Shown here: piece by piece, positions 1-21,792 of the stretch
How positions within the stretch are numbered: position 1 is the stretch's first letter
How the letters are laid out: each line of letters opens with the position of its first letter
NCBI GenBank assembly: GCA_023475455.1
Contig: JAMCVR010000244.1
Location: 1 to 21,792 of the forward strand
Length of the DNA stretch: 21,792 nucleotides
Source of the DNA: Thermoplasmatota archaeon
GTDB taxonomy: Bacteria; Pseudomonadota; Gammaproteobacteria; Burkholderiales; Thiobacillaceae
Reading direction: 5' to 3'
Position numbers and translations under genes: made by a program
The notes under the pieces: model-generated
What the model saw: only the letters and a program-made list of their open reading frames with translations
Databases searched by the model: none
What the model was told of the DNA's origin: nothing

Positions 1-127
1 CGACGCACATGCAAAGACTCAGAACTCCTTGATCACCCACATCGGCGGCCGCATCCCGGAGTCGAGGCTGTCCTGCCGGGCAAACTGGCCGTCGCCCTTC
101 TGGTCGATCAGGTAGTACGGCTTGCCG
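1..127 (-). pseudogene. Duplicate 3' fragment of the DUF2782 gene
   Basis: These bases repeat 1189-1315 exactly (offset 1188). They cover the last codons of the DUF2782-type protein encoded intact at 1207-1530, plus a few bases beyond its stop. At 127/128 the sequence switches abruptly to the 3' end of uvrD on the other strand, at a short stretch (ttgccg) that fits both genes. It looks like the end of one copy of a tandem-duplicated segment whose other edge lies outside the window. It cannot encode a product by itself. Confidence 0.85.
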
Positions 128-394
128 GAACAGGTGCTGATGCGCCTCAACCACCGCAGCGAGCCGGCCTACCCGTCAAGCGGAACCGGCACGCCAGCGG
201 CGACGCCGCGCAGCGCCCAGGCAGGCAACGACACCGGCTACCGCGTGGGCCAGAGCGTGGCCCACGCCAAGTTCGGCACCGGCATCATCATCGACTTCGA
301 GGGGCGCGGCCCCGACGCGCGGGTGCAGGTGAAATTCCGCGACGCCGGCACCAAGTGGCTGGCGCTGGCGTACGCCAAGCTGTCGGCAGCCTGA
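122..394 (+). CDS. uvrD: DNA helicase II (UvrD) C-terminal end, partial
   Basis: The reading frame to the TGA at 392-394 matches the extreme C-terminus of UvrD/Rep-type superfamily 1A helicases: a GYRVGQSVAHAKFGTG stretch followed by VQVKFRDAGTKWLALAYAKL, the Tudor-like tail that binds RNA polymerase in UvrD. Only about 88 residues are present; the helicase core is missing because the sequence upstream of about 125 is a duplicated piece of another gene. UvrD unwinds DNA in nucleotide excision and mismatch repair. The gene ends five bases before the convergent stop codon of the membrane-protein gene at 400. The true upstream part should lie outside the window, next to the other copy of the duplicated segment. 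The TTG at 122 is not a real start. Confidence 0.85.
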   Translation: MPEQVLMRLNHRSEPAYPSSGTGTPAATPRSAQAGNDTGYRVGQSVAHAKFGTGIIIDFEGRGPDARVQVKFRDAGTKWLALAYAKLSAA

Positions 395-399
395 ATGTA

Positions 400-1173
400 C
401 TAGCGCGACACCACGTTGCCGGGCGCGGGCTCGTCCGCCCACACCGCGAATATCGCCTGATACGAGGCGTACAGCGAACCGAACAGCAACGGCATCGCCA
501 CCAGCAGACCGAGCAGCAACGGCACCAGCGCGGCGAGGAACAGCAGCAGGCCGAGCGCGAGGCCATTCACCAGCATCGCCGCCCAGTTCCTGGCGACGGC
601 TTTCAGGCTGATGCCCAGCGCGGTGGCCGGACGGGCGCCGCCGAACAGGATCAGCGCGGGGGCGAACCAGGTGGCCATGATGAGGGGGGTGAACAACACC
701 AGTCCGGTCAGCACCGCGGGCATGGACTGATTCAGCACGGCTTGCATCTCCTGCGCCGTGGCATCTCCGCGCTTGGCGGCCTCCATCAGCGCTTCGGGAT
801 CGAACCCCATGCCCAGCATGACCTGGCCGATCAGCAGGGTGCCCAGCAATTGCACGGCGCCCACCGTCATCAACGGAATCGCCGGGCCCTGCAGGCCGGC
901 CAGAAAATGCGGCAGTTCGAGTTCGCCGCCGCCGTCGAGCGCGCGATACGCAGCCATGAAGCCGGCCACCATCAGCGGCGAAGCCAGTTCGGACAGCGAG
1001 CTGCCCACCACGGGGATCAGGCCGAGCGCCATCACCACGCCGAACAGCAGGCCGAACGCGGCGGACAGCAACAGGGGATTTTGGCGATACAGGCGAAAGC
1101 CTGCGACCACCCACTGAAAACCCTGGCTGGCCGCGACCTTGCGCGGGATGTCTTGATTGGAAGCGGTATTCAT
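400..1173 (-). CDS. BPSS1780-family integral membrane protein
   Basis: A 257-residue protein with an N-terminal cytoplasmic stretch followed by about five or six hydrophobic segments (for example LLLSAAFGLLFGVVMALGL near residues 34-52, and a long apolar run around residues 195-230). The pattern QGFQWVVAGFRLYRQNP followed by membrane segments is typical of the BPSS1780 family, a betaproteobacterial group of unknown function. It starts at the ATG at 1171-1173, 19 bases after the point where the duplicated segment of 1189-1315 begins, and ends convergently with uvrD. No enzymatic motif is visible. The assignment is to a family only; no function is proposed. Confidence 0.75.
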   Translation of the reverse strand: MNTASNQDIPRKVAASQGFQWVVAGFRLYRQNPLLLSAAFGLLFGVVMALGLIPVVGSSLSELASPLMVAGFMAAYRALDGGGELELPHFLAGLQGPAIPLMTVGAVQLLGTLLIGQVMLGMGFDPEALMEAAKRGDATAQEMQAVLNQSMPAVLTGLVLFTPLIMATWFAPALILFGGARPATALGISLKAVARNWAAMLVNGLALGLLLFLAALVPLLLGLLVAMPLLFGSLYASYQAIFAVWADEPAPGNVVSR

Positions 1174-1206
1174 GCGGCCGATTTTACCCGACGCACATGC
1201 AAAGAC

Positions 1207-1530
1207 TCAGAACTCCTTGATCACCCACATCGGCGGCCGCATCCCGGAGTCGAGGCTGTCCTGCCGGGCAAACTGGCCGTCGCCCTTCTGGTCGATCAGG
1301 TAGTACGGCTTGCCGACCCTGGGGATGACTTTCAGCATGTAGAGCCTGCCGTTGGCGCGGTACTCGACGACGCGCCCCTGGCTGCTCGGCTTGATCGTCA
1401 CCGGCGGCGCATCGCCGGGACCCGGCGCGCCGTCGGGAACGGGCTTCAGTTCGGGCGGGCGGTCGGACGGCGCGGCGGCAACGGCGAGGCCGCTCAACAA
1501 CAGGGTCAGCAACAGGACGGGATAACGCAT
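1207..1530 (-). CDS. Secreted DUF2782-type protein
   Basis: A 107-residue protein beginning [20 protein letters not shown], a classical Sec signal peptide with cleavage expected around residues 19-21. The mature part starts with a Pro-rich stretch and contains a small domain with RVVEYRANGRLYMLKVIP and KPYYLIDQKGDG, as in the DUF2782 family of betaproteobacteria, which lies near polA in these genomes. The ATG at 1528-1530 was chosen because a GGAG ribosome-binding site sits six bases upstream and the signal peptide begins there; a longer open frame up to 1638 overlaps the next gene and is not needed. It is probably periplasmic. Its function is unknown. Its 3' end is repeated at 1-127. Confidence 0.75.
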   Translation of the reverse strand: MRYPVLLLTLLLSGLAVAAAPSDRPPELKPVPDGAPGPGDAPPVTIKPSSQGRVVEYRANGRLYMLKVIPRVGKPYYLIDQKGDGQFARQDSLDSGMRPPMWVIKEF

Positions 1531-1561
1531 GACAGGCTCCGGAAGAAAAAAGGTTCGTGGC

Positions 1562-2290
1562 TCACAGATTGAACTGGATTTCGCGCTCGGCCAGTGACGG
1601 CATGAAGCCGCGTTTTTCATAATGGCTGAAGATGGCATCGACCACCTCTTCGGGTTTGTCGATGATACGCATGAGGTCGACGTCGCCGGGTGAAATCATG
1701 CCTTCATCCACCATCCTGGTTTTCACCCAGTCGGCCAGTCCCGCCCAGTAGCTCGAGCCCACCAGGACGATGGGAATGGGCGCGATTTTCCCGGTCTGCA
1801 CCAGGGTCAGCGCCTCGAACAGCTCGTCCAGCGTGCCGAAGCCGCCGGGCATGACGACGTAGGCGGCGGCAAACTTGACGAACATGACCTTGCGCGCGAA
1901 AAAATGCTGGAAGGTCTGGCTGATGTCCTGGTAGGCGTTGGAAACCTGTTCGTGCGGCAGCTGGATGTTGAGACCGACGCTCGGCGACTTGCCGAAATAG
2001 GCGCCCTTGTTGGCGGCTTCCATGATGCCGGGGCCGCCGCCGGAGATGACCGAGAAGCCGGCGTCCGACAGCTTGCGCGCGATCTCTTCGGTCAGCATGT
2101 AATACGCATGGTCGGGCGGCGTGCGCGCGCTGCCGAAGATCGATACCGCCGGACGGATGAACGCCAGGCGTTCGGTCGCCTCGACGAACTCTGCCATAAT
2201 CCCCAGCATCCGCCACGATTCGCGCGCCGAGTAATCGATCTCGGCGGTACGACCCGGGTCGGCGGCGGCAGGCAATTTATCAAAGTGCAT
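1562..2290 (-). CDS. LOG family protein (TIGR00730 Rossmann fold)
   Basis: A 242-residue member of the LOG/TIGR00730 family, whose characterised members are nucleoside 5'-monophosphate phosphoribohydrolases (cytokinin-activating LOG enzymes and bacterial PpnN/YgdH relatives). Two family signatures are visible: [15 protein letters not shown] at residues 83-97 and PGGFGTLDE at 148-156, the glycine-rich phosphate site and catalytic Glu region. The N-terminal [19 protein letters not shown] block is typical of the proteobacterial subgroup, so the long start is kept. The ATG at 2288-2290 is preferred over one at 2311, which would overlap the divergent polA start. In the cell it probably releases the base from nucleoside monophosphates; the exact substrate cannot be read from sequence. 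Confidence 0.85.
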
Positions 2291-2296
2291 TTTCGA

Positions 2297-3671
2297 GCGC
2301 CTCGTGAACAATCTCAGTGTGACCCATCCCGGAAAAATCCTGTTGCTGGTGGACGGCTCGTCCTATCTGTACCGCGCGTTTCATGCGCTGCCCGACCTGC
2401 GCAACAAGGCGGGCGAACCAACCAATGCGATCAAGGGCGTGCTCTCCATGCTGCACAAATTGCGGAAGGACTACGCGGCCGATTATATCGCCTGCGTGTT
2501 CGACGCGAAGGGCAAGACCTTCCGCGACGATCTGTATCCCGAGTACAAGGCCCACCGGCCGCCGATGCCGGACGATCTGCGCAGCCAGATCGAACCGCTG
2601 CATGACGCGATCCGCGCCGAAGGCTGGCCGCTCGTCATGATCGACGGCGTCGAGGCCGACGACGTGATCGGCACCCTGGTGCAGCACGCCGCGCGGCAGG
2701 GCATCCGCAGCATCGTCTCCACCGGCGACAAGGACATGGCGCAACTGGTCGACGACCACGTGACGCTGGTCAACACCATGAGCCAGGAAACGCTCGATCC
2801 GGCGAGCGTGGCCGCCAAGTTCGGCGTGCCGCCCGAACGCATCATCGATTACCTCACGCTGATCGGCGATGCGGTGGACAACGTGCCCGGCGTCGCCAAG
2901 GTGGGGCCGAAAACCGCGGTGAAGTGGCTCGCCGAATACGGCTCGCTCGACAACCTGCTGGCGCACGCGGATGAGATCAAGGGCGCCTCGTGAACAATCT
3001 CAGTGTGACCCATCCCGGAAAAATCCTGTTGCTGGTGGACGGCTCGTCCTATCTGTACCGCGCGTTTCATGCGCTGCCCGACCTGCGCAACAAGGCGGGC
3101 GAACCAACCAATGCGATCAAGGGCGTGCTCTCCATGCTGCACAAATTGCGGAAGGACTACGCGGCCGATTATATCGCCTGCGTGTTCGACGCGAAGGGCA
3201 AGACCTTCCGCGACGATCTGTATCCCGAGTACAAGGCCCACCGGCCGCCGATGCCGGACGATCTGCGCAGCCAGATCGAACCGCTGCATGACGCGATCCG
3301 CGCCGAAGGCTGGCCGCTCGTCATGATCGACGGCGTCGAGGCCGACGACGTGATCGGCACCCTGGTGCAGCACGCCGCGCGGCAGGGCATCCGCAGCATC
3401 GTCTCCACCGGCGACAAGGACATGGCGCAACTGGTCGACGACCACGTGACGCTGGTCAACACCATGAGCCAGGAAACGCTCGATCCGGCGAGCGTGGCCG
3501 CCAAGTTCGGCGTGCCGCCCGAACGCATCATCGATTACCTCACGCTGATCGGCGATGCGGTGGACAACGTGCCCGGCGTCGCCAAGGTGGGGCCGAAAAC
3601 CGCGGTGAAGTGGCTCGCCGAATACGGCTCGCTCGACAACCTGCTGGCGCACGCGGATGAGATCAAGGGCG
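2297..3671. repeat. Tandem duplication of 686 bp in polA
   Basis: 2297-2985 equals 2983-3671. The copies share three bases (gcg, 2983-2985) at the junction. The start codon and upstream ten bases of polA are included, so the second copy again begins with GTG, now directly after a stop codon. Confidence 0.92.
2304..2993 (+). pseudogene. polA: Truncated first copy of polA (5' nuclease part)
   Basis: This frame is identical in translation to the first 227 residues of the polA copy starting at 2990, then hits a TGA created at the duplication junction (2985/2986). It carries most of the N-terminal 5'-3' exonuclease domain ([61 protein letters not shown]) but no proofreading or polymerase domain. 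The GTG at 2304 lies only 13 bases from the divergent ATG of the LOG gene. In the undamaged chromosome this is almost certainly the authentic 5' end of polA, continuing directly into the sequence found after 3671. Confidence 0.85.
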
Positions 3672-5134
3672 TGGCCGGCGACAATCTGCGCGCCGCCCGC
3701 GACTGGCTGCCGCGGGCGCGCGTGCTGCTCACCATCAAGACCGACGTGGCGCTGCCGTTCGATTTCGACGACCTCGTACTGAAGCCGCGCGACACCGATG
3801 CGCTGCGGTCGCTGTTTGAACGCTACGAATTCCGCACCTGGCTGCGCGAGCTCGATGCCGCCGCGACGGCGAGCCCCGAGGTACCGGAACAGGACTGCAG
3901 CGGCGACCATCGCGCCCGTTACGAAACGATCCTGACCGAAGCCGCGCTCGACGCCTGGATCGCCAAACTCGAAGCGGCGCCGGCGTTTGCGCTCGACACC
4001 GAAACCACCAGCCTCAACGCCATGCAGGCCGAACTGGTCGGGATATCGTTCGCCGTCGGCCACGGCGAGGCGGCCTACCTGCCGCTGGCGCATCACTACG
4101 CCGGCGCGCCGGCGCAGCTCGATCGCGCGGCCGTGCTGGCGAAGCTGAAACCGCTGCTGGAAAGCCCTGAACCCAGAATCGTCGGCCAGCACCTCAAGTA
4201 CGACCGCCACATTTTTGCCAATTACGGCATCGCGCTCGGCGGCGTGGTCGACGACACGCTGCTGCAGTCCTACGTGCTCGAAGCCCACCAGTCGCACGAG
4301 CTCGGCAATCTGGCGTCGCGCCACCTGGGTCTTGCCACGATCAGCTACGACGACGTCACCGGCAAGGGCGCAACACGCATCGGCTTCGAGCAGGTGGCGA
4401 TCGAGCGCGCCAGCGAATACGCGGCGGAGGATGCCGACGTCACGCTGCGCGTGCGGGATGCGCTGGCGCCGCGGATCGACGCCTCCGATAAATTGGCTTT
4501 CGTCTACCGCAACATCGAACTGCCGGTGGCCGAGATACTCTTTCGCATGGAGCGCACCGGCGTGCTGCTCGACCGCAACCTGCTCGCGGTGCAAAGCGGC
4601 GAGCTCGGCAGAAAGATGCTGGAACTGGAGCAGCGCGCCTACCAGGAAGCCGGGCAGCCGTTCAACCTCGGCTCGCCCAAGCAGATCGGCGACATCCTGT
4701 TTACCCGAAAGGGCCTGCCGGTCGTCAAGAAAACCCCCGGCGGCGCGCCGTCCACCGACGAGGAGACGCTGGAACAACTGGCGCTCGACCATCCGATCGC
4801 GCGCGCGATTCTCGACTACCGCGGGATGGCCAAGCTGAAATCGACCTACACCGACAAGCTGCCGCAGATGATTCATCCGCGCACCGGGCGCCTGCACACC
4901 AGCTATTCGCAGGCCACCGCGGTGACCGGGCGGCTGGCCAGCTCCGACCCCAACCTGCAGAACATTCCCGCGCGCACCGCCGAGGGCCGCCGCATCCGCG
5001 AGGCCTTCATCGCGCCGCCCGGGCACCTGCTGGTGTCGGCCGACTATTCGCAGATCGAGCTGCGCATCATGGCGCACCTGTCGGACGACGCCGGCCTGCT
5101 GCACGCATTTGCCGCGGATCGACGCCTCCGATAA
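2990..5134 (+). CDS. polA: DNA polymerase I, N-terminal and middle part (frame broken)
   Basis: It encodes residues 1-708 of DNA polymerase I, the enzyme that removes RNA primers, fills gaps and works in excision repair. Domains in order: 5'-3' nuclease (about 1-290), an active-looking 3'-5' exonuclease with DTET (D336, E338), the [11 protein letters not shown] motif and YAAEDADV (Y477, D481), then the start of the polymerase domain up to motif A (DYSQIELR, D685). After residue 708 a 643-bp tandem duplication shifts the frame and the product ends in a short unrelated tail. If the extra 643 bp is removed (joining 5110 to 5754) the gene runs to 6359 as a normal 908-residue PolA. The GTG start overlaps the stop of the truncated first copy by duplication, not by design. 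Confidence 0.9.
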
Positions 5135-5756
5135 ATTGGCTTTCGTCTACCGCAACATCGAACTGCCGGTGGCCGAGATACTCTTTCGCATGGAGCGCAC
5201 CGGCGTGCTGCTCGACCGCAACCTGCTCGCGGTGCAAAGCGGCGAGCTCGGCAGAAAGATGCTGGAACTGGAGCAGCGCGCCTACCAGGAAGCCGGGCAG
5301 CCGTTCAACCTCGGCTCGCCCAAGCAGATCGGCGACATCCTGTTTACCCGAAAGGGCCTGCCGGTCGTCAAGAAAACCCCCGGCGGCGCGCCGTCCACCG
5401 ACGAGGAGACGCTGGAACAACTGGCGCTCGACCATCCGATCGCGCGCGCGATTCTCGACTACCGCGGGATGGCCAAGCTGAAATCGACCTACACCGACAA
5501 GCTGCCGCAGATGATTCATCCGCGCACCGGGCGCCTGCACACCAGCTATTCGCAGGCCACCGCGGTGACCGGGCGGCTGGCCAGCTCCGACCCCAACCTG
5601 CAGAACATTCCCGCGCGCACCGCCGAGGGCCGCCGCATCCGCGAGGCCTTCATCGCGCCGCCCGGGCACCTGCTGGTGTCGGCCGACTATTCGCAGATCG
5701 AGCTGCGCATCATGGCGCACCTGTCGGACGACGCCGGCCTGCTGCACGCATTTGCC
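4468..5756. repeat. Tandem duplication of 643 bp in polA
   Basis: 4468-5113 equals 5111-5756, with gcc (5111-5113) shared at the junction. The 643-bp unit is not a multiple of three, so it breaks the polA frame within the polymerase domain just after motif A. Confidence 0.92.
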
Positions 5757-6359
5757 AACGACCTGGACATCCACACCGCCACCGCCGCCGAGGTGTTCGG
5801 CGTGCCGCTCGATGCCGTCAACGCCGAGCAGCGGCGCATGGCCAAGGTCATCAACTTCGGCCTGATCTACGGCATGTCGGCTTTCGGCCTGGCCAGCCAG
5901 CTCAATCTCGAACGCGCCGCCGCGCAGGCCTGGATCGACCGCTACTTCGCGCGCTATCCCGGCGTGGCCGACTACATGCAGCGCACGCGCGAGGCGGCGC
6001 GCAGCCAGGGCTACGTCGAGACCGTGTTCGGCCGCCGGCTGTACCTTCCCGAAATCAACGCCAAAAACCCGCAGCGCCGCCAGGGCGCCGAACGCGCCGC
6101 CATCAACGCGCCGATGCAGGGCACCGCCGCCGACCTCATCAAGCTGGCGATGATTGCGGTGCAGGGCTGGCTCGACCAGGAAAACCTGGCCAGCCGTTTG
6201 TTATTGCAAGTACACGACGAACTCATCCTCGAAGTGCCCGAGCGGGAACTCGACCGCATGCGCGCCGAACTGCCCGCGCACATGTGCAACGTCGCCGCGC
6301 TCAAGGTGCCCTTGCGGGTGGGGGTGGGCGCCGGCCCCAACTGGGAGGCGGCGCACTAG
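5111..6359 (+). CDS. polA: DNA polymerase I, C-terminal polymerase part
   Basis: This is the second copy of 4468-5113 followed by the unique 3' end of polA. It encodes the complete polymerase domain: motif A ([15 protein letters not shown]), motif B (RRMAKVINFGLIYGMSAFG) and motif C (QVHDELILEVP), ending at a TAG at 6357-6359. It is out of frame with the preceding part and has no native start codon; the first in-frame start-like codon is a TTG at 5109. In the intact gene the sequence from 5754 on continues the frame that starts with the GTG. Identity is certain; the fragment status is most likely an assembly effect. Confidence 0.9.
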
Positions 6360-6377
6360 CTGCCAGCGTTGTCACTC

Positions 6378-6442
6378 ACAAAGAGGACGCGGAGGACACG
6401 GAGAGCAACCCGCCCCCTTTGCGCCCTCCGTGTCCTCTTTGT
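6378..6442. terminator. Long imperfect hairpin between polA and the OmpA gene
   Basis: Arms 6378-6395 and 6425-6442 pair over 18 positions with one G-T-type mismatch, around a 29-base loop. A run of six T follows at about 6450 on the plus strand, so it can end polA transcripts; it sits between convergent genes and may serve both. The left arm contains the nine-base word GAGGACRCG twice in a row, as in dispersed intergenic palindromes known from many environmental bacteria. No gene fits in 6360-6473. Confidence 0.6.
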
Positions 6443-6473
6443 AAAGTGCTTTTTTCCTGGTTCCTGTTTCCGC

Positions 6474-7472
6474 TTACTGTTGCGGGATCAGTTCCACGCG
6501 GCGGTTCCTGAAGCGGCCTTCTGCGGTCTTGTTGTCGGCCACCGGCTTGGCTTCGCCATACCCTTTTGCCGTCAGGCGATCCGCTGCCACGCCCTGCTTG
6601 ATCAGATAGTCGCGTACGGCTTCCGCACGGCGCTGCGACAGCCTGAGGTTGTAGGCGTCGGTGTTGACCGAATCGGTGTGCCCCGCCACTTCAACCTTGA
6701 CCTCGCCCCACTCCTTCAACGTGGCGGCCGCGTGGTCCAGAATCGTGATGGACTCGGGGCGCAGCCTGGCGCTGTCGGTGTCGAAGTTCACCCCTTCCAG
6801 CGTCAGTTTCCTGGGCGCGGCGGGCTCAGCGGCCGGGGCCGGCTCGGGCTCGACCACCTTGGGCGGGCAGCCATCGGCCGTGCCGGGCGCGGGAACGGTC
6901 GGGCACTTGTCCAGGTAGTCAGGGATGCCGTCGCCGTCGGAATCCAGCGGGCAGCCGTCGGCGTTGACCTTCACGCCGGCGGGGGTGTCGGGACACTTGT
7001 CGAGACCGTCGAACACGCCGTCGCCGTCGGAATCCAGCGGGCAGCCCCTGGCGTCGACCTTCGCACCTTTCGGCGTATTGGGGCACTGGTCCTTGCGGTT
7101 GGCCACGCCGTCGCCGTCGGAATCCAGCGGCGCACCCAGTCCCCAGGAATAACCCAGCAGCGCCTGGAAGTTGGTCAGGCCGGCGTTCGGCAGCGTGTCG
7201 TTGCCGAACGACTGGTCGGCACGCACTTCCCAGCGGAAGGCGTCGTTGGCGCCGACTTCCCATGCCTGCCCCACGCCCACCGAAGCCAACGGGCGGGTGA
7301 AGTCGGGGCCGTTGTCGGTGTTGACGTTCATCAGGCCGAGGCCGCCGGACAGGAACCAGTTGTAGCGCTGCTGTTTGGAGAACAGCCATTCGAGGCCGCC
7401 GCGCAGCGTGGTCACGTCGGCATCGCCCACGCCGGCGCGGTTGCCGTCATAGGGGCCGTAGACCAGATCGCC
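6474..7472 (-). pseudogene. Truncated copy of the OmpA-family porin gene
   Basis: It holds the downstream part of the OmpA-like gene, from the end of the barrel region through the thrombospondin type 3 repeats to the true C-terminus (ends NRRVELIPQQ, TAA at 6474). It lacks the signal peptide and the first strands because 6507-7472 is the duplicate of 7471-8436. In the undamaged gene the last codons at 6474-6508 should follow directly after the copy at 7473. The frame opens at 7523 in out-of-frame sequence, so no functional protein is expected from this piece alone. Confidence 0.85.
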
Positions 7473-8436
7473 TGAAGCGGCCTTCTGCGGTCTTGTTGTC
7501 GGCCACCGGCTTGGCTTCGCCATACCCTTTTGCCGTCAGGCGATCCGCTGCCACGCCCTGCTTGATCAGATAGTCGCGTACGGCTTCCGCACGGCGCTGC
7601 GACAGCCTGAGGTTGTAGGCGTCGGTGTTGACCGAATCGGTGTGCCCCGCCACTTCAACCTTGACCTCGCCCCACTCCTTCAACGTGGCGGCCGCGTGGT
7701 CCAGAATCGTGATGGACTCGGGGCGCAGCCTGGCGCTGTCGGTGTCGAAGTTCACCCCTTCCAGCGTCAGTTTCCTGGGCGCGGCGGGCTCAGCGGCCGG
7801 GGCCGGCTCGGGCTCGACCACCTTGGGCGGGCAGCCATCGGCCGTGCCGGGCGCGGGAACGGTCGGGCACTTGTCCAGGTAGTCAGGGATGCCGTCGCCG
7901 TCGGAATCCAGCGGGCAGCCGTCGGCGTTGACCTTCACGCCGGCGGGGGTGTCGGGACACTTGTCGAGACCGTCGAACACGCCGTCGCCGTCGGAATCCA
8001 GCGGGCAGCCCCTGGCGTCGACCTTCGCACCTTTCGGCGTATTGGGGCACTGGTCCTTGCGGTTGGCCACGCCGTCGCCGTCGGAATCCAGCGGCGCACC
8101 CAGTCCCCAGGAATAACCCAGCAGCGCCTGGAAGTTGGTCAGGCCGGCGTTCGGCAGCGTGTCGTTGCCGAACGACTGGTCGGCACGCACTTCCCAGCGG
8201 AAGGCGTCGTTGGCGCCGACTTCCCATGCCTGCCCCACGCCCACCGAAGCCAACGGGCGGGTGAAGTCGGGGCCGTTGTCGGTGTTGACGTTCATCAGGC
8301 CGAGGCCGCCGGACAGGAACCAGTTGTAGCGCTGCTGTTTGGAGAACAGCCATTCGAGGCCGCCGCGCAGCGTGGTCACGTCGGCATCGCCCACGCCGGC
8401 GCGGTTGCCGTCATAGGGGCCGTAGACCAGATCGCC
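6507..8436. repeat. Tandem duplication of 964 bp in the OmpA-like gene
   Basis: 6507-7472 equals 7471-8436, sharing cc at the junction. The 964-bp unit is not a multiple of three. Translations of both copies are identical in every part compared, including all three TSP3 repeats. Confidence 0.92.
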
Positions 8437-8649
8437 GAAGAAATTGGTGTCGGCGCCCAAACGCTGGCCATAACGCAGGCCGAACAGCGGATTGACCTCG
8501 TCGTCCTTGCCGCCGACCAGATCCTTGTCTGCCCAGCCGCCGCCCAGCAGCAATCCCAGTTCGCGCTCCGGCATCTCGGCCGCGCTGGCCGTTGCGCCGG
8601 CCAGCGTGACCAGACCGGCCAGCAGCCAGACCGCTTGTGTTCGTTTCAT
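7447..8649 (-). CDS. OmpA-family outer membrane protein with TSP3 repeats
   Basis: This outer membrane protein anchors the envelope to peptidoglycan. Order: signal peptide (MKRTQAVWLLAGLVTLAGAT, cleavage near residues 23-24), a beta-barrel-like region to about 188, three calcium-binding thrombospondin type 3 repeats (each with DSDGDG and a Cys pair, about 189-280), a Pro/Ala/Glu linker, then an OmpA C-terminal domain with NFDTDSARL, VAGHTDSVNTDAYNLRLSQRRA and GYGEAKPV. The ATG at 8647-8649 has a GGGAG site upstream; a longer frame to 8718 lacks support. The frame is broken only at the very end: the last ten native residues are replaced by seven others at the 964-bp duplication junction. Restored, the protein has 403 residues. 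Confidence 0.88.
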   Translation of the reverse strand: MKRTQAVWLLAGLVTLAGATASAAEMPERELGLLLGGGWADKDLVGGKDDEVNPLFGLRYGQRLGADTNFFGDLVYGPYDGNRAGVGDADVTTLRGGLEWLFSKQQRYNWFLSGGLGLMNVNTDNGPDFTRPLASVGVGQAWEVGANDAFRWEVRADQSFGNDTLPNAGLTNFQALLGYSWGLGAPLDSDGDGVANRKDQCPNTPKGAKVDARGCPLDSDGDGVFDGLDKCPDTPAGVKVNADGCPLDSDGDGIPDYLDKCPTVPAPGTADGCPPKVVEPEPAPAAEPAAPRKLTLEGVNFDTDSARLRPESITILDHAAATLKEWGEVKVEVAGHTDSVNTDAYNLRLSQRRAEAVRDYLIKQGVAADRLTAKGYGEAKPVADNKTAEGRFRRSGLRPL

Positions 8650-8719
8650 TTGAATGCTCCCGTGTAACGAAAAGGAAAAACCGCTCATCCCCCTCAATCG
8701 GTCAGGGACAGATTGCACG

Positions 8720-8748
8720 ATTGTATCTGTCGCCCCTCACCCGGTCAC
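8720..8748 (-). promoter_or_regulatory. Probable sigma-70 promoter of the OmpA-like gene
   Basis: On the minus strand, a -35-like GTGACC (8743-8748, four of six to consensus) is followed after 17 bases by TACAAT (8720-8725, five of six). It lies 71 bases before the start codon at 8649. A perfect seven-base inverted repeat, GACAGAT/ATCTGTC at 8707-8713 and 8725-8731, straddles the -10 box and could be an operator. This is read by eye only. Confidence 0.5.
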
Positions 8749-8780
8749 CAAAAGCCGGGGGGCTGACGTCTAAATCAGCT

Positions 8781-8808
8781 GCCGCGTTGCGCCTGCGCAA
8801 CACGCGGC
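8781..8808. terminator. GC-rich hairpin after mscL
   Basis: Left arm gccgcgttgcgc (8781-8792) pairs with the right arm 8795-8808, with a two-base bulge and a very short loop. It lies just downstream of the mscL stop on the minus strand. There is no T-run, so it may act as a weak or Rho-assisted terminator. Confidence 0.4.
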
Positions 8809-8815
8809 GCCTTAC

Positions 8816-9229
8816 TTACTTCTTCAGACCGTCCCGAATCTCGCGCAGCAGCACGATGTCTTCCGGCGTGGCCGTGGGGGACGCAGGCGGCGCCTCCTTC
8901 TTCAGCCGGTTGAGCTGCTTGACGATGACGAAGACGATGAAGGCCAGAATGACGAAATTGAGCAGGATGGTGAGGAAGCTGCCATAGGCGAACACCGGCA
9001 CCCCCGCATTCCTGACCTCGGCCAGCGTCATGGCCACGCCATCCGGCACGCTGCCGAGCGCGATGAACAGGTTGGAAAAGTCGAAGCCGCCGAATACCGC
9101 GCCGACGACCGGCATGATCAAATCCTTGACGATGGAATCGACGATCTTGCCGAAGGCGGCGCCGATGATGACGCCGACCGCCAGGTCCATGGCATTGCCC
9201 TTGACCGCGAATTCTTTGAATTCGGACAT
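8816..9229 (-). CDS. mscL: Large-conductance mechanosensitive channel
   Basis: A 137-residue MscL, the usual family length. It forms a homopentameric inner-membrane channel that opens under extreme membrane tension to release solutes during osmotic downshock. Visible features: an N-terminal amphipathic start [12 protein letters not shown], the pore helix [18 protein letters not shown] (about residues 13-30), a periplasmic loop, a second hydrophobic helix [19 protein letters not shown], then [12 protein letters not shown] and a C-terminal helix ending REIRDGLKK. The ATG at 9227-9229 was chosen over an upstream frame reaching 9364 because the family begins here and a purine-rich site lies upstream. 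It is divergent from dusB with about 128 bases between, where both promoters should lie. Confidence 0.95.
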
Positions 9230-9357
9230 GAAGCTCAAGTTTCCCCCTTGTGTTTGCCGGTGGAATATCGTGTGGTTGATGATAGTCACAGCGGCGACAG
9301 GCTGCCAGTACAAAAGTAATTTTTCCCGGCTTGGTGGGGGCCCGCGAGGAGGGTAAA

Positions 9358-9960
9358 ATGCCACCCCTTATGCGCATCGGCAGCCACCTCCTCAAGAACC
9401 GCCTGATCGTCGCCCCCATGGCCGGGGTGACCGACCGGCCTTTCCGCCAGCTTTGCAAGAAGCTGGGCGCGGGCATGGCCGTGTCCGAGATGGTGACGTC
9501 GAACTCGCTCTTGTACGGCTCGGCGAAGACGGCGCGGCGCGCCAACCACGAAGGCGAGGCCGACCCGATCAGCGTGCAGATCGCCGGCGCCGACCCGAAG
9601 ATGATGGCGGAGGCCGCGTGCCACAACGTCGACCGCGGCGCCCAGATCATCGACATCAACATGGGCTGCCCGGCCAGGAAGGTGTGCAACGTGATGGCGG
9701 GTTCCGCCCTGCTGCAGGACGAGCCGCTGGTCGGGCGCATCCTCGACGCCGTGGTGAAGGCCGTTCCCGACGTGCCGGTGACGCTGAAGATCCGTACCGG
9801 CTGGGACCGCGAGCACAGGAATGCGCTCAGCATCCTCAAAATTGCCGAGAACGCCGGGGTGCAGGCGCTGGCGATGCACGGCCGCACCCGCGCCTGCGGC
9901 TACAGCGGCGAGGCCGAATACGACACCCTCCGCGCGGTGAAGGCGAACGCGAAGATTCCG
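9358..9960 (+). CDS. dusB: tRNA-dihydrouridine synthase B, N-terminal part (frame broken)
   Basis: An FMN-dependent enzyme that reduces specific uridines in the tRNA D-loop. The first 201 codons are here: [19 protein letters not shown] near the start, the catalytic-Cys motif [11 protein letters not shown] (C104), and LKIRTGW. An ATG at 9358 is preceded by GAGGAGGG at suitable spacing; an ATG at 9370 is possible but too far from that site. At 9960/9961 a 415-bp duplication shifts the frame. Joining 9960 to 10376 gives an intact protein of 354 residues. A long open frame continuing to 11091 is an accident that reads shifted dusB and then fis. Confidence 0.9.
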
Positions 9961-10375
9961 CCACGAAGGCGAGGCCGACCCGATCAGCGTGCAGATCGCC
10001 GGCGCCGACCCGAAGATGATGGCGGAGGCCGCGTGCCACAACGTCGACCGCGGCGCCCAGATCATCGACATCAACATGGGCTGCCCGGCCAGGAAGGTGT
10101 GCAACGTGATGGCGGGTTCCGCCCTGCTGCAGGACGAGCCGCTGGTCGGGCGCATCCTCGACGCCGTGGTGAAGGCCGTTCCCGACGTGCCGGTGACGCT
10201 GAAGATCCGTACCGGCTGGGACCGCGAGCACAGGAATGCGCTCAGCATCCTCAAAATTGCCGAGAACGCCGGGGTGCAGGCGCTGGCGATGCACGGCCGC
10301 ACCCGCGCCTGCGGCTACAGCGGCGAGGCCGAATACGACACCCTCCGCGCGGTGAAGGCGAACGCGAAGATTCCG
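9546..10375. repeat. Tandem duplication of 415 bp in dusB
   Basis: 9546-9960 equals 9961-10375. The junction at 9960/9961 shows no shared base on either side, unlike the other duplications. The unit is not a multiple of three and breaks the frame. Confidence 0.92.
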
Positions 10376-10837
10376 GTCATCGCCAACGGCGACATCACCA
10401 CCCCGGAAAAGGCGCAATACGTCCTCGAATACACCGGCGCCGACGCCGTGATGATCGGCCGCGCCGCGCAGGGCCGCCCGTGGGTCTTCCGCGAGATCGC
10501 ACACTTCCTCGCCACCGGCGTTCACCTGCCGCAGCCGGAAGTGGCGGAAATCCACGCCGTGCTGCTCCAGCACATCCACGACCTGTACGCATTCTACGGC
10601 GACGTCACCGGGGTGCGCGTCGCGCGCAAGCACATTTCCTGGTACACCCGCGGGCTGGTCGGCAGCAGCGCCTTCCGCCACACCATGAACCGGCTCGACT
10701 CGGCGGCCGAACAGCTCGCCGTGGTCAACGACTACTTTGCCCAGGCGGCGCGCGCCGACAACCGCCTGCGCTACGAAACCGAACTCCAAAACAACAACGC
10801 GGAAGACATGCCGCCCGCCTCACGGCTCGCGGCATAA
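9961..10837 (+). CDS. dusB: tRNA-dihydrouridine synthase B, C-terminal part
   Basis: This repeats 9546-9960 and then carries the unique 3' end to the TAA at 10835-10837. It contains the catalytic-Cys motif again, the flavin-site block VIANGDI and GADAVMIGRAAQGRPW, and the C-terminal helical domain. Read alone it could start at a TTG or GTG near 9989, without the N-terminal FMN-binding strands, so it is unlikely to be active as a separate product. It is followed 14 bases later by fis, the common dusB-fis operon of proteobacteria. Confidence 0.9.
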
Positions 10838-10851
10838 AGGGGAACTTCAAC

Positions 10852-11091
10852 ATGATGGAAGAAAACGAAATCGCCGCCTGCATGCGGCGGTCGCTCAACC
10901 GCTATTTCAAGGACCTCGACGGCGAAACGCCGACCGAGATTTACAGCATGGTGCTGGGCGCGGTGGAAAAACCCCTGCTGGCCTACATCCTCGACCGCGC
11001 CGAAGGCAACCAGACGCGCGCCGCCGACATGCTCGGCATCAACCGCAACACCCTGCGCAAGAAAATGCGCGAACACGGCCTCTCGGATTAA
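10852..11091 (+). CDS. fis: Fis family DNA-binding regulator
   Basis: A 79-residue small nucleoid protein. The C-terminal helix-turn-helix is clear: [26 protein letters not shown] (about residues 51-76, here read in two halves), as in Fis, which bends DNA and affects rRNA promoters, recombination and global supercoiling. The N-terminal region with [19 protein letters not shown] is typical of betaproteobacterial Fis. ATG at 10852, with a second ATG directly after it at 10855; AAGGGGAA lies upstream. It sits downstream of dusB as in many proteobacteria, and seven bases before purH, so the three genes are probably cotranscribed. Confidence 0.93.
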
Positions 11092-11098
11092 ATTCCCC

Positions 11099-12685
11099 AT
11101 GACCATTCAACGTGCCCTGCTTTCCGTGTCGGATAAAACCGGTCTCGTCGATTTCGCCCGCGCGCTCGCCACGGCCGGCGTCGAACTGCTGTCCACCGGC
11201 GGCACCGCCAAGGCGTTGCGCGACGCCGGCCTGGCGGTGATCGACGTCAGCGACTACACCGGCTTCCCGGAAATGCTCGACGGCCGCGTCAAGACGCTGC
11301 ATTCCAAGGTGCACGGCGGCATCCTGGCGCGGCGCGACCTTGCGGATCACGTCGCCACCATGGAGAAGCACGGCATGCCCTACATCGACCTGGTGTGCGT
11401 AAACCTCTATCCCTTCGTCGCCACCGTATCGAAGCCGCACACGCTGGACGACGCCATCGAGAACATCGACATCGGCGGCCCGGCGATGGTGCGCTCGTCG
11501 GCCAAGAACTACCGCCATGTCGCCATCGTCACCGACCCCGCCGACTACCCGGCGCTGGTCGCCGAAATGCAGGCCAACGGCGGCGTGCTGACCGACGCCA
11601 CCCGCTTCAATCTGGCGAAGAAGGCGTTTTCCCACACCGCCGAATACGACGGCGCCATCAGCAACTATCTCACCGCGCTCAACGAAAAGAATGAGCGCGA
11701 GGCCTTCGGCGAGAAGCTGAACCTGCAGTTCACCCGCGCGCAGACCTGCCGCTACGGCGAGAACCCGCACCAGGCCGGCGCCTTCTACGTCGAGGCCAAG
11801 GCCCCGGCCGGCACGATTTCCACGGCACGGCAGATCCAGGGCAAGGAACTCTCCTACAACAACATCGCCGACACCGACGCCGCGCTCGAATGCGTGAAGC
11901 TGTTCGACGCCGCACCCGCCTGCGTCATCGTCAAGCACGCCAACCCGTGCGGCGTGGCCTACGGCGCGACTCTGCTGGACGCCTACGACCGCGCCTATCA
12001 GACCGATCCCGAATCGGCCTTCGGCGGCATCATCGCCTTCAACGGCCGGCTGGATGGGGCAACGGCGCAGGCCATCGTCGAACGCCAGTTCGTCGAGGTC
12101 ATCATCGCGCCCGAAGTCAGCCCGGAAGCCTCCGCCGCCGTCGCCGCGAAGAAGAACGTGCGCCTGCTCGAATGCGGCCAATGGGCGGGGGCGCCGTCGG
12201 GGAACCCGACCCAATTGGGCACAGCCCAGCTCGACATGAAGCGCGTCGCCGGCGGCCTCCTGGTGCAGGACGCCGACGTGCTGCTGCACGGCGAGCTGAA
12301 GACCGTCACCCGGCGCGCGCCAAGCGCCCAGGAAATGGACGACCTCCTGTTCGCCTGGCGCGTCGCCAAGTTCGTCAAGTCCAATGCGATCGTCTACGCG
12401 AAAGACCGCATGACCGTCGGCGTCGGCGCCGGCCAGATGAGCCGCGTCAACTCGGCGCGCATCGCCGCGATCAAGGCCGAGCACGCCGGCCTGCCGGTGC
12501 CCGGCTCGGTGATGGCGTCCGACGCCTTCTTCCCCTTCCGCGACGGCATCGACCAGGCCGCGGCGGCGGGCATCCAGGCGGTGATCCAGCCCGGCGGCTC
12601 GATGCGCGACGACGAAGTCATCGCCGCGGCGAACGAGCACGGCATCGCGATGGTGTTCACCGGGACGCGGCATTTCCGACATTGA
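11099..12685 (+). CDS. purH: Bifunctional AICAR formyltransferase / IMP cyclohydrolase
   Basis: A 528-residue enzyme catalysing the last two steps of IMP synthesis. The N-terminal IMP cyclohydrolase domain shows [15 protein letters not shown] and [18 protein letters not shown]; the C-terminal AICAR formyltransferase domain has the active-site motif KHANPCG (K279, H280), [11 protein letters not shown], and the ending [14 protein letters not shown] and [16 protein letters not shown] tail (here [12 protein letters not shown]). The length is normal and the frame unbroken. The ATG at 11099 lies seven bases after the fis stop. purD follows after a 146-base gap filled by a hairpin element, so both purine genes are neighbours but may not be read at equal levels. 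Confidence 0.97.
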
Positions 12686-12690
12686 TTGCG

Positions 12691-12806
12691 AGGGACTAGG
12701 AGCTAGGATTTAGGGGCTAGGGAATGAGCGGCTTCGCCGCACCTCGTGAATTCATTCCACGCGGCGAAGCCGCACAAAGCCCCCTAATCCCTAGCTCCTA
12801 GCCCCT
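12691..12806. repeat. Long CTAGG-type palindromic element between purH and purD
   Basis: Outer arms 12691-12717 and 12779-12806 are near-perfect inverted repeats made of iterated words such as CTAGGAGCTAGG. An inner 13-bp perfect stem (12728-12740 with 12761-12773, gcggcttcgccgc) closes a 20-base loop. It fills most of the 146-base gap; the sequence then runs CT-rich into the purD ATG with no visible ribosome-binding site. It may end or attenuate transcription after purH, or be a mobile REP-like element. No other copy is present in the window. Confidence 0.7.
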
Positions 12807-12831
12807 AACCCCTAACCAGCCCCTCACACAC

Positions 12832-14109
12832 ATGAAACTCCTAGTCATCGGCTCCGGCGGACGCGAACACGCACTGGCGTGGAAGCTCGCGCAATCACCC
12901 CGCGTCTCGCAGGTATTCGTCGCGCCCGGCAACGGCGGCACGGCGACGGAAGACGGTCTGGTCAACGTGCCCTTGACCTCGATTCCGTCGCTGGTCGAAT
13001 TCGTCCGCCGCGATCCGGACATCGCGTTCACCGTGGTCGGCCCCGAGGCGCCGCTGGCGGCCGGCGTGGTCGACGCCTTCCGCGCCGCCGGCCTGAAGAT
13101 TTTCGGCCCCACGCAGGCCGCCGCCCGGCTCGAGAGCTCGAAGGATTTCGCCAAGCAGTTCATGGCGCGCCACGGCATTCCCACCGCCGCCTTCGGCACC
13201 TTCACCGATGCCGCCGCGGCGCACGCCTACATCGATCAACACGGCGCGCCCATCGTGGTGAAGGCCGACGGCCTCGCCGCCGGCAAGGGCGTGGTGGTCG
13301 CCGCCACCGCGGAGGAAGCGCATGCCGCGGTCGATGCCATGCTCTCCGGCAACAGCATGGGCGAAGCCGGGCATCGTGTGGTGATCGAGAAATGCCTCAT
13401 CGGCGAGGAAGCCAGCTTCATCGTCATGGTCGACGGCGAGCATGTGCTGGCGCTCGCTTCCAGCCAGGACCACAAGCGCCTGGGCGACGGCGACACCGGC
13501 CCCAACACCGGCGGCATGGGCGCGTATTCGCCGGCCCCGGTCGTCACGCCCGAGCTGCACGCGCGCATCATGCGCGAGGTCATCCACCCCACCGTCGAAG
13601 GCATGGCCGCCGACGGCATCCGCTATACCGGCTTTCTCTACGCCGGCATCATGGTCGGTGCGGACGGCGCACCCAGGGTGCTCGAATTCAACTGCCGCAT
13701 GGGCGACCCGGAAACCCAGCCGATCATGATGCGGCTGAAATCCGATCTGGTGACCCTGGTGGAAGCGGCCGTCAACGGCCGGCTCGACCAGGTCGAAGCC
13801 GAATGGGACCGCCGCACCGCGCTCGCCGTGGTGCTGGCGGCCGCCGGCTATCCGGACGCTCCGCAAAAAGGCGCCGTCCTCGGCGCGCTGCCCGCCGCGG
13901 CCGAGGACCTGCACGTGTTCCACGCCGGCACCGCCGCGCGGGACGGCCGGACGGTGGTGAGCGGCGGCCGCGTGCTGGCGGTGACCGCGCTCGGCGACAG
14001 CGTGCGCATGGCGCAGAAACGCGCCTACGAAGCGGTGGCGGCCATCCACTTCGACGGCATGCAATATCGCCGCGACATCGGCTGGCGTGCGCTTGACCGG
14101 AAAAAGTGA
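12832..14109 (+). CDS. purD: Phosphoribosylamine-glycine ligase (GAR synthetase)
   Basis: A complete 425-residue enzyme that joins glycine to phosphoribosylamine with ATP in the second step of purine synthesis. Visible: N-terminal [34 protein letters not shown], the ATP-grasp region with [30 protein letters not shown], the family signature block [20 protein letters not shown], and [19 protein letters not shown]. The ATG at 12832 fits the family N-terminus. The last 82 codons are repeated at 14506-14752, but this copy is intact. The following gene, tsaC, begins about ten bases after the stop. Confidence 0.97.
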
Positions 14110-14118
14110 GGGTGAGGC

Positions 14119-14409
14119 GTGAGGGGTGAGGGGGCGGAACTGCGCGCGCACCTGCGGCGCGGCGACCTGATCGCCTACCCGACCGAATCCTGTTACGGGC
14201 TCGGCTGCGATCCGCGCAACGTCCGCGCGCTGCAACGGCTCATCCGGCTGAAGGGCCGCAGCGCCGCCAAAGGCCTGCTCCTGATCGCCGACCGTTTCAA
14301 ACGACTGAAACCCTTTGTTCGTCCCTTGAGCGCAGCTGAGCGGGGGCGGATGCAACGCAGCTGGCCCGGCCCCGTGACCTGGGTGGTGCCGGCGTCCGCC
14401 GCCTGCCCG
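14119..14409 (+). pseudogene. tsaC: Truncated first copy of tsaC
   Basis: The first 97 codons are identical to the intact tsaC at 14762: [34 protein letters not shown] and [13 protein letters not shown]. The sequence then switches at 14409/14410 to a stretch that is not tsaC, so the second half with the STSAN motif is missing. It would be the native 5' end in an undamaged chromosome. On its own it should not be functional. Confidence 0.85.
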
Positions 14410-14514
14410 TCGGCTTTGCGGTGGAAGACCGCGACCGCTCCAAGGGCGTGTATTTCGTGCGCTACATCGATCCCGAGATCGACAACGGCAGCAAGCGCGA
14501 CGAAGGCAAAAAGG
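14409..14514 (+). pseudogene. bamC: Short bamC-like fragment inserted at a duplication junction
   Basis: At least 96 bases (14410-14505) belong to neither tsaC nor purD. In the frame starting at 14409 they read VGFAVEDRDRSKGVYFVRYI followed by DPEIDNGSKRDEGKK, which strongly resembles a repeat of BamC/NlpB, the outer membrane assembly lipoprotein. The fragment meets the purD copy at about nine bases common to both (gcaaaaagg, 14506-14514). No complete bamC is in the window, so this piece was joined in from elsewhere in the genome or library. The identification is from recall of the family. Confidence 0.6.
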
Positions 14515-14752
14515 CGCCGTCCTCGGCGCGCTGCCCGCCGCGGCCGAGGACCTGCACGTGTTCCACGCCGGCACCGCCGCGCGGGACGGCCGGACGGTGG
14601 TGAGCGGCGGCCGCGTGCTGGCGGTGACCGCGCTCGGCGACAGCGTGCGCATGGCGCAGAAACGCGCCTACGAAGCGGTGGCGGCCATCCACTTCGACGG
14701 CATGCAATATCGCCGCGACATCGGCTGGCGTGCGCTTGACCGGAAAAAGTGA
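14506..14752 (+). pseudogene. purD: Duplicate 3' end of purD
   Basis: Bases 14506-14752 repeat 13863-14109 (offset 643) and encode the last 82 residues of GAR synthetase, with its stop codon. There is no native start; a GTG at 14558 could open a 64-residue remnant. It leads directly into the intact tsaC. Confidence 0.88.
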
Positions 14753-14777
14753 GGGTGAGGCGTGAGGGGTGAGGGGG
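14749..14777. repeat. GTGAGG iterated word at the purD-tsaC junction
   Basis: The purD stop is followed by repeated GTGAGG/GTGAGGC/GTGAGGG words. It supplies both a GAGGG ribosome-binding site (14751-14755) and the GTG start of tsaC at 14762. An identical stretch at 14106-14134 belongs to the other duplication copy. Confidence 0.6.
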
Positions 14778-15310
14778 CGGAACTGCGCGCGCACCTGCGG
14801 CGCGGCGACCTGATCGCCTACCCGACCGAATCCTGTTACGGGCTCGGCTGCGATCCGCGCAACGTCCGCGCGCTGCAACGGCTCATCCGGCTGAAGGGCC
14901 GCAGCGCCGCCAAAGGCCTGCTCCTGATCGCCGACCGTTTCAAACGACTGAAACCCTTTGTTCGTCCCTTGAGCGCAGCTGAGCGGGGGCGGATGCAACG
15001 CAGCTGGCCCGGCCCCGTGACCTGGGTGGTGCCGGCGTCCGCCGCCTGCCCGGCCCTGCTCACCGGCGGGCGCCCCACGATTGCCGTGCGCGTCACCGCC
15101 CATCCCGGCGCTGCGCGGCTGTGCCGCAGCCTCGGCATGGCGCTGGTCTCCACCAGCGCCAACAAAAGCGGCCGGAAACCCGCCAAAACCGCGGCGGAAT
15201 GCCGCAGAATATTCGGCGCGCGGGTGCGCGTGATCACCGGCCGCATCGGCACGCGCAAACGCCCATCCACCCTGATCGACTTAGCCACCGGAACGCTTCT
15301 TCGCCCCTGA
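14762..15310 (+). CDS. tsaC: Threonylcarbamoyl-AMP synthase (TsaC/YrdC/Sua5 family)
   Basis: A 182-residue protein, close to the length of E. coli TsaC (short form without the extra Sua5 domain). It makes threonylcarbamoyl-AMP from threonine, bicarbonate and ATP for the t6A modification of tRNAs reading ANN codons. Visible: [30 protein letters not shown] (KxR motif), [12 protein letters not shown], and [13 protein letters not shown] (the STSAN signature). The GTG at 14762 is the only plausible start, since an in-frame stop occurs two codons upstream at 14756; it lies inside a GTGAGG-repeat. The stop overlaps the hemF start by one base (TGATG), so the two genes are likely translationally coupled. 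Confidence 0.92.
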
Positions 15311-19200: not shown

Positions 19201-19567
19201 CCGTTACTTCGGCACGCTCACGGCGCTGGTGCCGGGCGAACAGGCCGGCCAGTTCGGCTTCACCAGTTCGCTCACCGCGCAGATCCTGAAAACCCTGCTG
19301 CCAGCTTTGCAGCCGCATCTGTACCCGGAGCCGCCGGCACCGCCCAGGCCGGCGGCCGCAGCCGAAGTGCCCCCGGCTGCACCGCAGCCGGTCGCGCCGG
19401 CACCGGCGCCGCGCGCCCCGGTGAAAGAAAAACCCGACGGCGCCACCAGCCAGGCCGATCCGCCGGTCAAGCAGCCGGAGCCGATCCAGGGCGGCTTCCC
19501 CGAGGACCTTGAACCCAGCGTGGTGCTGCCGGTGCCGGTCGCGCCGCCCGTGACCACGACGCCGTGA
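16238..19567 (+). CDS. Atypical class A penicillin-binding protein (GT51 + transpeptidase)
   Basis: A 1109-residue inner-membrane enzyme expected to polymerise and cross-link peptidoglycan in the periplasm. Order: a transmembrane anchor at about 8-31; a divergent GT51 glycosyltransferase domain with YIENREL (Glu157, in place of the usual EDxxF) and GGSTLPTQIEK (199-208, in place of GGSTITQQ); a linker with a short repeat; a transpeptidase domain with S528-TAK531, S633-V-N635 and K953-TGT; then a Pro/Ala-rich tail from about 1030. The spacing from SxN to KTG is about 318 residues, well above the roughly 125 in E. coli PBP1b, so the domain carries a large insertion. The GTG at 16238, one base after the hemF stop, is the start in this frame; no clear Shine-Dalgarno was seen. 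Confidence 0.82.
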   Translation: MHKVPRRILIGFAILLLTLGLAGLIAWELLSSALEAKYLARTAQKMTWQIRPGPSERIRYPGQGPYDVRLGYSKLPGYLARLGKAGWQIDRQARISIQMARAADLGLFLPYHEKDQAGLNLLDSDGKLLYQRLHPTRVYDRFEDIPRVLVDALLYIENRELLTEQFPTRNPAVEWDRLAQALLEKGISLIDTNRNVPGGSTLPTQIEKYRHSPEGLTSSMGEKLRQMGTASLRAYLDGPNTLPMRKKTVMAYLNTVPLAAAPRFGEVNGIGDGLWAWYGLDFAEVNRILKGTGTLKHPERHMGTGTPEKPKASRGKDAAYALKGSDPLRAKVPRGGMESYASALKHALSLIVAERRPSYYLAANRKALDALTDDHLDLLANAGLISRGLADQAKQVKLRATSQRIDPPPPRFVDQKAANAQRIRVARLLGEARLYDLDRLDLKVDTTIKQPAQKIVSRYLQSLARPEAAAASGLIGHRLLQPGNPLASVIYSFTLYEKTARGNLLRIQADNLDQPFDINSQARLDLGSTAKLRTLVTYLEIIARLHAEYRLLDAATLQQKAQPQRDVLAQWVATRLVGNRDETLAATLDAAMGRPYSAAPETFFTGGGLHNFANFDPKDNGRVMDVWEATRNSVNLVYIRIMRDIVRHYASSTPGAAARILDDATNPLRETYLARFVDQEGRVFINRFYQRHKKLTPAQMAEDLYARTRLNPRRFSAVFRYLEPQADFKTYVAALHKQVPASASLSQKTLESHYRTHAPDAYSLADRGYVTQIHPLELWVVKTLRAAPKTDLKTLYESGTGVRLEVYDWLFKTSRKNAQDIRIQSLLEVEAFDGLLRDWKRLGYPFDTVTPSYATAIGSSGDRPAALAELMSILVNDGVRAPMVSLTGLHFAADTPYDTRLSIKPAKGERLMPVEVAQTVRRALARVVEQGTAARLAGALKDPAGQPLVIGGKTGTGDNRFERYGRGGQLLESRVVNRTATFVFYLGDRYFGTLTALVPGEQAGQFGFTSSLTAQILKTLLPALQPHLYPEPPAPPRPAAAAEVPPAAPQPVAPAPAPRAPVKEKPDGATSQADPPVKQPEPIQGGFPEDLEPSVVLPVPVAPPVTTTP
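17107..17156. repeat. 14-bp direct repeat pair inside the PBP gene
   Basis: GGGCACAGGCACCC occurs at 17107-17120 and 17143-17156, 36 bases apart. In frame it gives two GTGT motifs in the linker between the glycosyltransferase and transpeptidase domains, in a stretch with codons (ACA, AGG, CTA nearby) that are rare in the rest of the gene. It may be a small inserted repeat that kept the frame. Confidence 0.6.
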
Positions 19568-21512: not shown

Positions 21513-21518
21513 CAAGAC

Positions 21519-21692: not shown

Positions 21693-21704
21693 AAGGAAAT
21701 CGTG

Positions 21705-21792
21705 ATGCAGGCGTTTGCACCCGTGGCCAGTTCCGTAGCTCGCTCTTGCCGGGTTCCGCTCGGTGTCCGGTCGGCGTCCGCTGAAGCTCAAA
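21705..21792 (+). CDS. Partial small ORF running off the window end
   Basis: An ATG at 21705 with an AAAGGAAA ribosome-binding site about six bases upstream opens a frame of at least 29 codons (begins MQAFAPVASSVARSC) with no stop before the window ends. It starts 28 bases after the GTTGGGC heptamer, which is the layout of an integron gene cassette start. No function can be assigned. Confidence 0.35.
   Translation, partial: MQAFAPVASSVARSCRVPLGVRSASAEAQ

What the first reader, a model, noticed from the sequence alone, without database searches (positions are those of the whole stretch)
1..15052. Six partial direct duplications break housekeeping genes in the first 15 kb
Direct repeats with offsets 1188, 686, 643, 964, 415 and 643 bp occur in uvrD/DUF2782, polA (twice), the OmpA-like gene, dusB and purD-tsaC. 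No differences between copies were found where compared, junction homology is 0-3 bases in most, and gene boundaries are ignored. Removing one copy of each restores normal-length proteins. This is what results when contigs with overlapping ends are concatenated without merging, or from chimeric amplification. Nothing comparable is seen after 15052. Two unrelated duplications have the same 643-bp offset, which may be chance. A real cell with polA and dusB both broken this way is unlikely.
Basis: partly seen in the sequence, partly recalled or inferred. Interest (0 to 1): 0.7.

Follow-up and report, generated by a model that had tools for sequence, protein, structure and literature searches.

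The report
Assembly-made tandem copies in Thiobacillus contig
Six stretches of ordinary bacterial housekeeping DNA appear twice in a row in this contig, most likely because the assembly program walked twice through false joints in the sequencing data, not because the living bacterium carries broken genes.

Summary
In detail: six perfect direct duplications (3,390 nt per set of copies, no mismatch) lie in the first 15,052 nt, none after. The organism is Thiobacillus-like. In 21 loci of relatives (20 genomes) each unit that is present is single copy. The repeat at the window start is exactly 127 nt, the top k in the SPAdes settings of two papers seen. In a k=127 graph a single back-jump junction gives such a start, and unmerged overlaps longer than 127 nt do not occur (toy graph). 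The sixth duplication holds 96 nt of an NlpB/BamC-type lipoprotein gene, over 1 Mb away in two relatives. Junction microhomology exceeds chance (P 0.0016 for seven joints, three of them inferred from relatives; 0.04 for the four seen directly). Best reading: head-to-tail chimeric molecules, probably made in vitro, became graph loops that were walked twice. Only polA and dusB are clearly broken and one OmpA C-terminus altered; the other three duplications leave complete genes. No reads were available, so real duplications are not excluded.

The parts
1..127 (+). Window start: last 127 nt of the first tandem unit (3' part of the DUF2782 gene, reverse strand), joined to the uvrD 3' end at 127/128
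   Evidence: Exact match to 1189-1315; exactly one repeated 127-mer and no repeated 128-mer for this pair
128..1315 (+). First tandem unit (1188 nt), the copy seen in full: uvrD 3' end, BPSS1780-family membrane protein gene, 3' part of DUF2782 gene
2297..2985 (+). Second duplication, copy 1: polA 5' part
   Evidence: 689-nt exact copy at 2983-3671
2983..3671 (+). Second duplication, copy 2
4468..5113 (+). Third duplication, copy 1: inner part of polA
   Evidence: 646-nt exact copy at 5111-5756; the two frames overlap on the polA profile at 476-691 of 889
5111..5756 (+). Third duplication, copy 2
6507..7472 (-). Fourth duplication, copy 1: OmpA/TSP3 gene
   Evidence: 966-nt exact copy at 7471-8436; Pfam
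7471..8436 (-). Fourth duplication, copy 2
9546..9960 (+). Fifth duplication, copy 1: dusB
   Evidence: 415-nt exact copy at 9961-10375; frames cover the DusB profile at 1-194 and 67-317 of 319
9961..10375 (+). Fifth duplication, copy 2
13863..14409 (+). Sixth duplication, copy 1: purD 3' end and tsaC 5' part
   Evidence: 547-nt exact copy at 14506-15052
14410..14505 (+). 96-nt spacer: fragment of an NlpB/DapX lipoprotein gene (the name bamC is recalled) from elsewhere in this kind of genome
   Evidence: Pfam Lipoprotein_18 E 1e-4, 21.8 bits, under the cut-off of 25; 91% to 1501-1596 of L081 inside an ORF that matches Lipoprotein_18 at E 9e-50; up to 99% in the genus
14506..15052 (+). Sixth duplication, copy 2

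Best explanation
The window is most likely a whole short-read contig of an uncultured Thiobacillus-like bacterium, made by a de Bruijn graph assembler with k=127 (SPAdes type). The reads held junctions in which the end of a 0.4-1.2 kb stretch is followed by its own beginning (once through a 96-nt piece of a lipoprotein gene). Each junction turns the graph into a loop, and the assembler walked each loop twice and wrote A-X-X-B. Shown here: the exact duplications, single copy in the relatives examined, the foreign 96-nt piece, the 127-nt start, and that a toy graph with one back junction has an edge that would give the same start. Inferred: the assembler and its k, that the window is the whole record, that junction reads exist, that the loops were walked twice, and that the junctions were made in vitro (template switching or self-ligation) rather than in the cell.
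For: Six exact tandem repeats, none after 15052. Relatives single copy wherever a unit is present at over half coverage, of 21 loci: unit 1, 17 of 17; unit 2, 18 of 18; unit 3, 19 of 19; unit 5, 20 of 20; unit 6, 21 of 21; unit 4, 10 present, double cover only within its own TSP3 repeats. Start repeat is exactly one 127-mer. Toy graph: the junction edge begins with the loop's last 127-mer, and no two unitigs share more than 127 nt at their ends. Two papers use SPAdes with k up to 127 (PMC6511391; PMC12352057; passages seen). The spacer comes from a gene about 1.02 and 1.37 Mb away in two relatives. Microhomology of 5, 3, 3, 2, 0, 1, 3 nt: P 0.0016 against random back junctions. 5 of 7 joints share 2 nt or more, against 20% in the null and 76.8% in MDA chimeras (PMC1855051, passages).
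Against: No reads, depth or assembly graph could be examined. No assembler was run; the toy graph contained the junction by design, so it shows that the idea suffices, not that it happened. Local MDA chimeras are mostly inverted (337 inverted, 11 direct under 10 kb; PMC1855051; inverted also dominate in PMC6515389), while all six here are direct; that only loops survive assembly is untested. The microhomology excess is only P 0.04 for the four joints seen directly; the other three are inferred from relatives: the first from 6 of 8 loci whose alignment reached the joint, the spacer's 5' joint shares 1 nt in the closest relative and 2 in the other five, its 3' joint 3 nt in four of six and 2 in two. 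PMC4595205 gives an overlap peak of 6 nt for inverted MDA chimeras, longer than here.
Confidence: 0.6

Rival explanations
1. Contigs with overlapping ends, from different assemblies or k values, were concatenated without merging; the lipoprotein piece is a chimeric contig end.
For: Perfect identity and no gap in four of six; the five full pieces between joints are 2.1-4.5 kb, plausible contigs.
Against: Within one de Bruijn assembly end overlaps cannot exceed k (toy). The exact 127-nt start would be chance. Blind joining predicts no microhomology excess.
Confidence: 0.15
2. The tandem duplications are real in at least some cells: recent microhomology-mediated duplications, one with a templated 96-nt insert from a distant gene.
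For: All six are direct, as tandem duplication requires; short microhomology; three of six leave complete genes. Sequence alone cannot tell a real junction from one made in the tube.
Against: Six in 15 kb and none in the next 6.7 kb; polA and dusB frames broken; no unit doubled in the 21 loci examined; 118 of the 120 polA relatives listed are 872-932 aa (where only lengths of 0.55-1.75 times the query could appear); for the dusB junction frame 27 hits, the best-scoring 52% identical over 77%, the rest covering 28% or less except one at 31% over 79% and one at 44% over 46%.
Confidence: 0.15
3. The junctions come from small circles in the DNA (circularised fragments or extrachromosomal circles of 0.4-1.2 kb), which can give only head-to-tail joints.
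For: Direct-only joints and loop sizes of 415-1188 nt; the sixth would be a two-piece circle of 547+96 nt.
Against: No depth or read evidence was available. That such circles are not established in bacteria is own knowledge, not searched.
Confidence: 0.08

Closest known systems
False duplications in genome assemblies (PMC2864568, PMC9516828: titles and starts of abstracts seen in listings)
   Same: Copies created by assembly that mimic recent duplications and disturb gene models.
   Different: Those listings speak of diploid genomes whose two haplotypes are built apart; here a bacterium, and probably graph loops from junction reads.
Chimeras of multiple displacement amplification (PMC1855051, PMC4595205, PMC6515389: passages seen)
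   Same: Joints between nearby places, with a few complementary bases, at distances up to a few kb.
   Different: Those are mainly inverted; all six here are direct. Whether this sample was amplified is unknown.

Membership tests
Assembly-graph loop artefact (k=127 de Bruijn) | Repeat at a contig end of exactly k nucleotides | tested here: met
   1-127 recurs at 1189-1315; one repeated 127-mer, no repeated 128-mer. That position 1 is the record's start and that k was 127 are inferred
Assembly-graph loop artefact (k=127 de Bruijn) | Junction reads present, at lower depth than the flanks | not testable with these tools
   No reads or graph held
Unmerged overlapping contigs | Exact tandem copies with no junction homology beyond chance | tested here: inconclusive
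   Exact copies met; homology above chance, P 0.0016 with seven joints, 0.04 with the four seen directly
MDA chimera | Complementarity of 2 nt or more at most joints | tested here: met
   5 of 7 joints; three of the seven values rest on relatives
MDA chimera | Mostly inverted orientation | tested here: not met
   0 inverted, 6 direct
Real chromosomal tandem duplication | Present in independent assemblies or relatives | tested here: not met
   0 of 21 relative loci; no close match to the dusB junction frame among 27 hits. Same-species contigs could not be searched

The most novel reading that the evidence does not exclude
A natural Thiobacillus population really carries a cluster of microhomology-mediated tandem duplications, one with a templated insert from a gene about 1 Mb away: a bacterial counterpart of replication-based chromosome rearrangement (chromoanasynthesis), perhaps in a minority of cells or as small circles.
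Probability: 0.07. Interest if true: 0.7.

Novelty: not a real feature. Interest (0 to 1): 0.15.

Why it matters
It warns that contigs can hold perfect tandem copies that split housekeeping genes into plausible but false pseudogenes and truncated proteins, and it suggests a simple marker to screen for: a contig-end repeat of exactly k nucleotides together with internal head-to-tail copies. Claims of gene loss or duplication from such contigs would be wrong.

Tried and rejected
Own-genome search: no genome is held for the window. Rfam at gathering thresholds and ARAGORN: nothing. Repeat- or element-mediated duplication: disfavoured, since unit ends fall in or beside ordinary genes and no repeat of 20 nt or more flanks them; the two imperfect inverted pairs are not at unit ends. 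Old duplication: disfavoured, as copies are identical while the closest relative differs by about 9-16%. Independent recurrence of the dusB junction: 27 hits, none close to the window; this is weak, since the database is clustered at 90% identity and only the 7,945 candidates sharing most words were scored. The window's own frames were not seen among the hits listed. No metagenome scan was allowed, so same-species contigs could not be sought. Literature: seven counted searches; no title or abstract start in their listings names this loop artefact, so the loop-walking step rests on own knowledge and the toy graph. Passages of PMC11237453 and PMC10029925 gave no k setting.

Full report
Observation. 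Copies are identical over 127, 689, 646, 966, 415 and 547 nt. Four are head-to-tail, sharing 3, 3, 2 and 0 nt at the joint. The first is cut by the window start. The sixth has 96 extra nt between its copies.

What the DNA is. The genes are the uvrD 3' end, a BPSS1780-family membrane protein, DUF2782, a TIGR00730-family protein, polA, an OmpA/TSP3 protein, mscL, dusB, fis, purH, purD, tsaC, hemF, a large protein with transglycosylase and transpeptidase matches, a GAF histidine kinase and a LuxR-type response regulator. The closest locus found is a Thiobacillus sp. MAG (L001, PurH 91%), collinear, its aligned blocks 84-91% identical; it lacks the OmpA-like gene at this place.

Relatives. Twenty loci were fetched, chosen by hand from the 56 genus genomes; with L001 this makes 21 loci from 20 genomes. 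Counting a unit as present at more than half coverage, units 1, 2, 3, 5 and 6 are single copy in 17 of 17, 18 of 18, 19 of 19, 20 of 20 and 21 of 21. The OmpA unit is present in 10 of 21; one search's automatic tally called only 4 of these single because its internal TSP3 repeats match twice, and one search shows that the double cover lies only in those repeats (window 6863-7130). Of the 120 best polA relatives listed, 118 are 872-932 aa long; the others are 685 and 802 aa.

Which genes suffer. The second polA duplication splits polA: the two frames cover profile positions 2-691 and 476-889 of 889. The two DusB frames cover 1-194 and 67-317 of 319. The OmpA-like frame 7447-8718 differs only at its C-terminal end from the frame 6474-7523. 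PurD, TsaC and DUF2782 keep a complete frame. The first polA duplication begins 7 nt before the start codon, so its second copy has the whole N-terminus. UvrD may be complete upstream, outside the window (inference). Of the six offsets only 1188 is a multiple of three.

The spacer. Bases 14410-14505 match the NlpB/DapX lipoprotein family weakly and L081 at 91%, inside an ORF with a strong match to that family. 52 of 56 genus genomes have a match at E up to 0.001, the best 99% identical. In two relatives where both lie on one contig of about 3 Mb, that gene is about 1.02 Mb (G012) and 1.37 Mb (G007) from this locus. The spacer is thus a piece of another part of the same kind of genome.

The 127-nt start. 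At k=127 the first repeat is exactly one k-mer, and at 128 it vanishes. In a toy k=127 graph built from a relative's locus plus one back junction, the junction edge runs from the loop's last 127-mer to its first; a path starting there begins with a 127-nt repeat, as this window does, and no two unitigs shared more than 127 nt at their ends. The toy held the junction by design and no assembler was run. Two papers, of which passages were seen, list SPAdes runs with k up to 127 (PMC6511391; PMC12352057). That the window starts at its record's start is inferred.

Microhomology. Six of eight relatives reached the first joint and suggest 5 shared nt. The spacer's 5' joint shares 1 nt with the closest relative and 2 with the other five; its 3' joint shares 3 with four of six and 2 with two. 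With 5, 3, 3, 2, 0, 1, 3, random back junctions reach the sum with P 0.0016; with the first joint but not the spacer P is 0.0035; with the four joints seen directly P is 0.04.

Mechanism. Back-jump molecules in the library, looped in the graph and walked twice, would explain the start repeat, the exact copies, the microhomology and the foreign piece. Against a plain MDA origin, local MDA chimeras are mainly inverted (337 to 11 under 10 kb in PMC1855051), although 90.9% of the direct ones under 10 kb there had complementary bases, which fits. Self-ligated fragments and other template switching remain open, and so do real duplications. Reads would decide.

Noticed in passing
window 17105-17254: The transglycosylase/transpeptidase gene (16238-19567) has about 120 nt of extra in-frame sequence compared with G030 and G025. 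Its 3' part (about 17191-17254) resembles a short repeat found at several other places in many genus genomes; the whole stretch has matches in 34 of 56, up to 15 in one, but some of these matches are the gene itself. The RNA fold of 17188-17262 is no better than shuffles (z 0.95).
   Followed up: partly
window 6474-8718: The OmpA/TSP3 gene between polA and mscL is present in 10 of 21 relative loci and has no match in the other 11, including L001; some of the 11 do not cover the interval.
   Followed up: partly
L001 and L103 (G001:C46 and G001:C81): One MAG holds two contigs with this transpeptidase gene, both 86% to the window, which suggests two strains in one bin or a second gene copy.
   Followed up: no
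window 21511-21792: After the response regulator the sequence diverges: of 32 relative loci compared, 15 matched the end stretch at all and only L091 (72%) matched beyond about 21510; several loci end near there.
   Followed up: no
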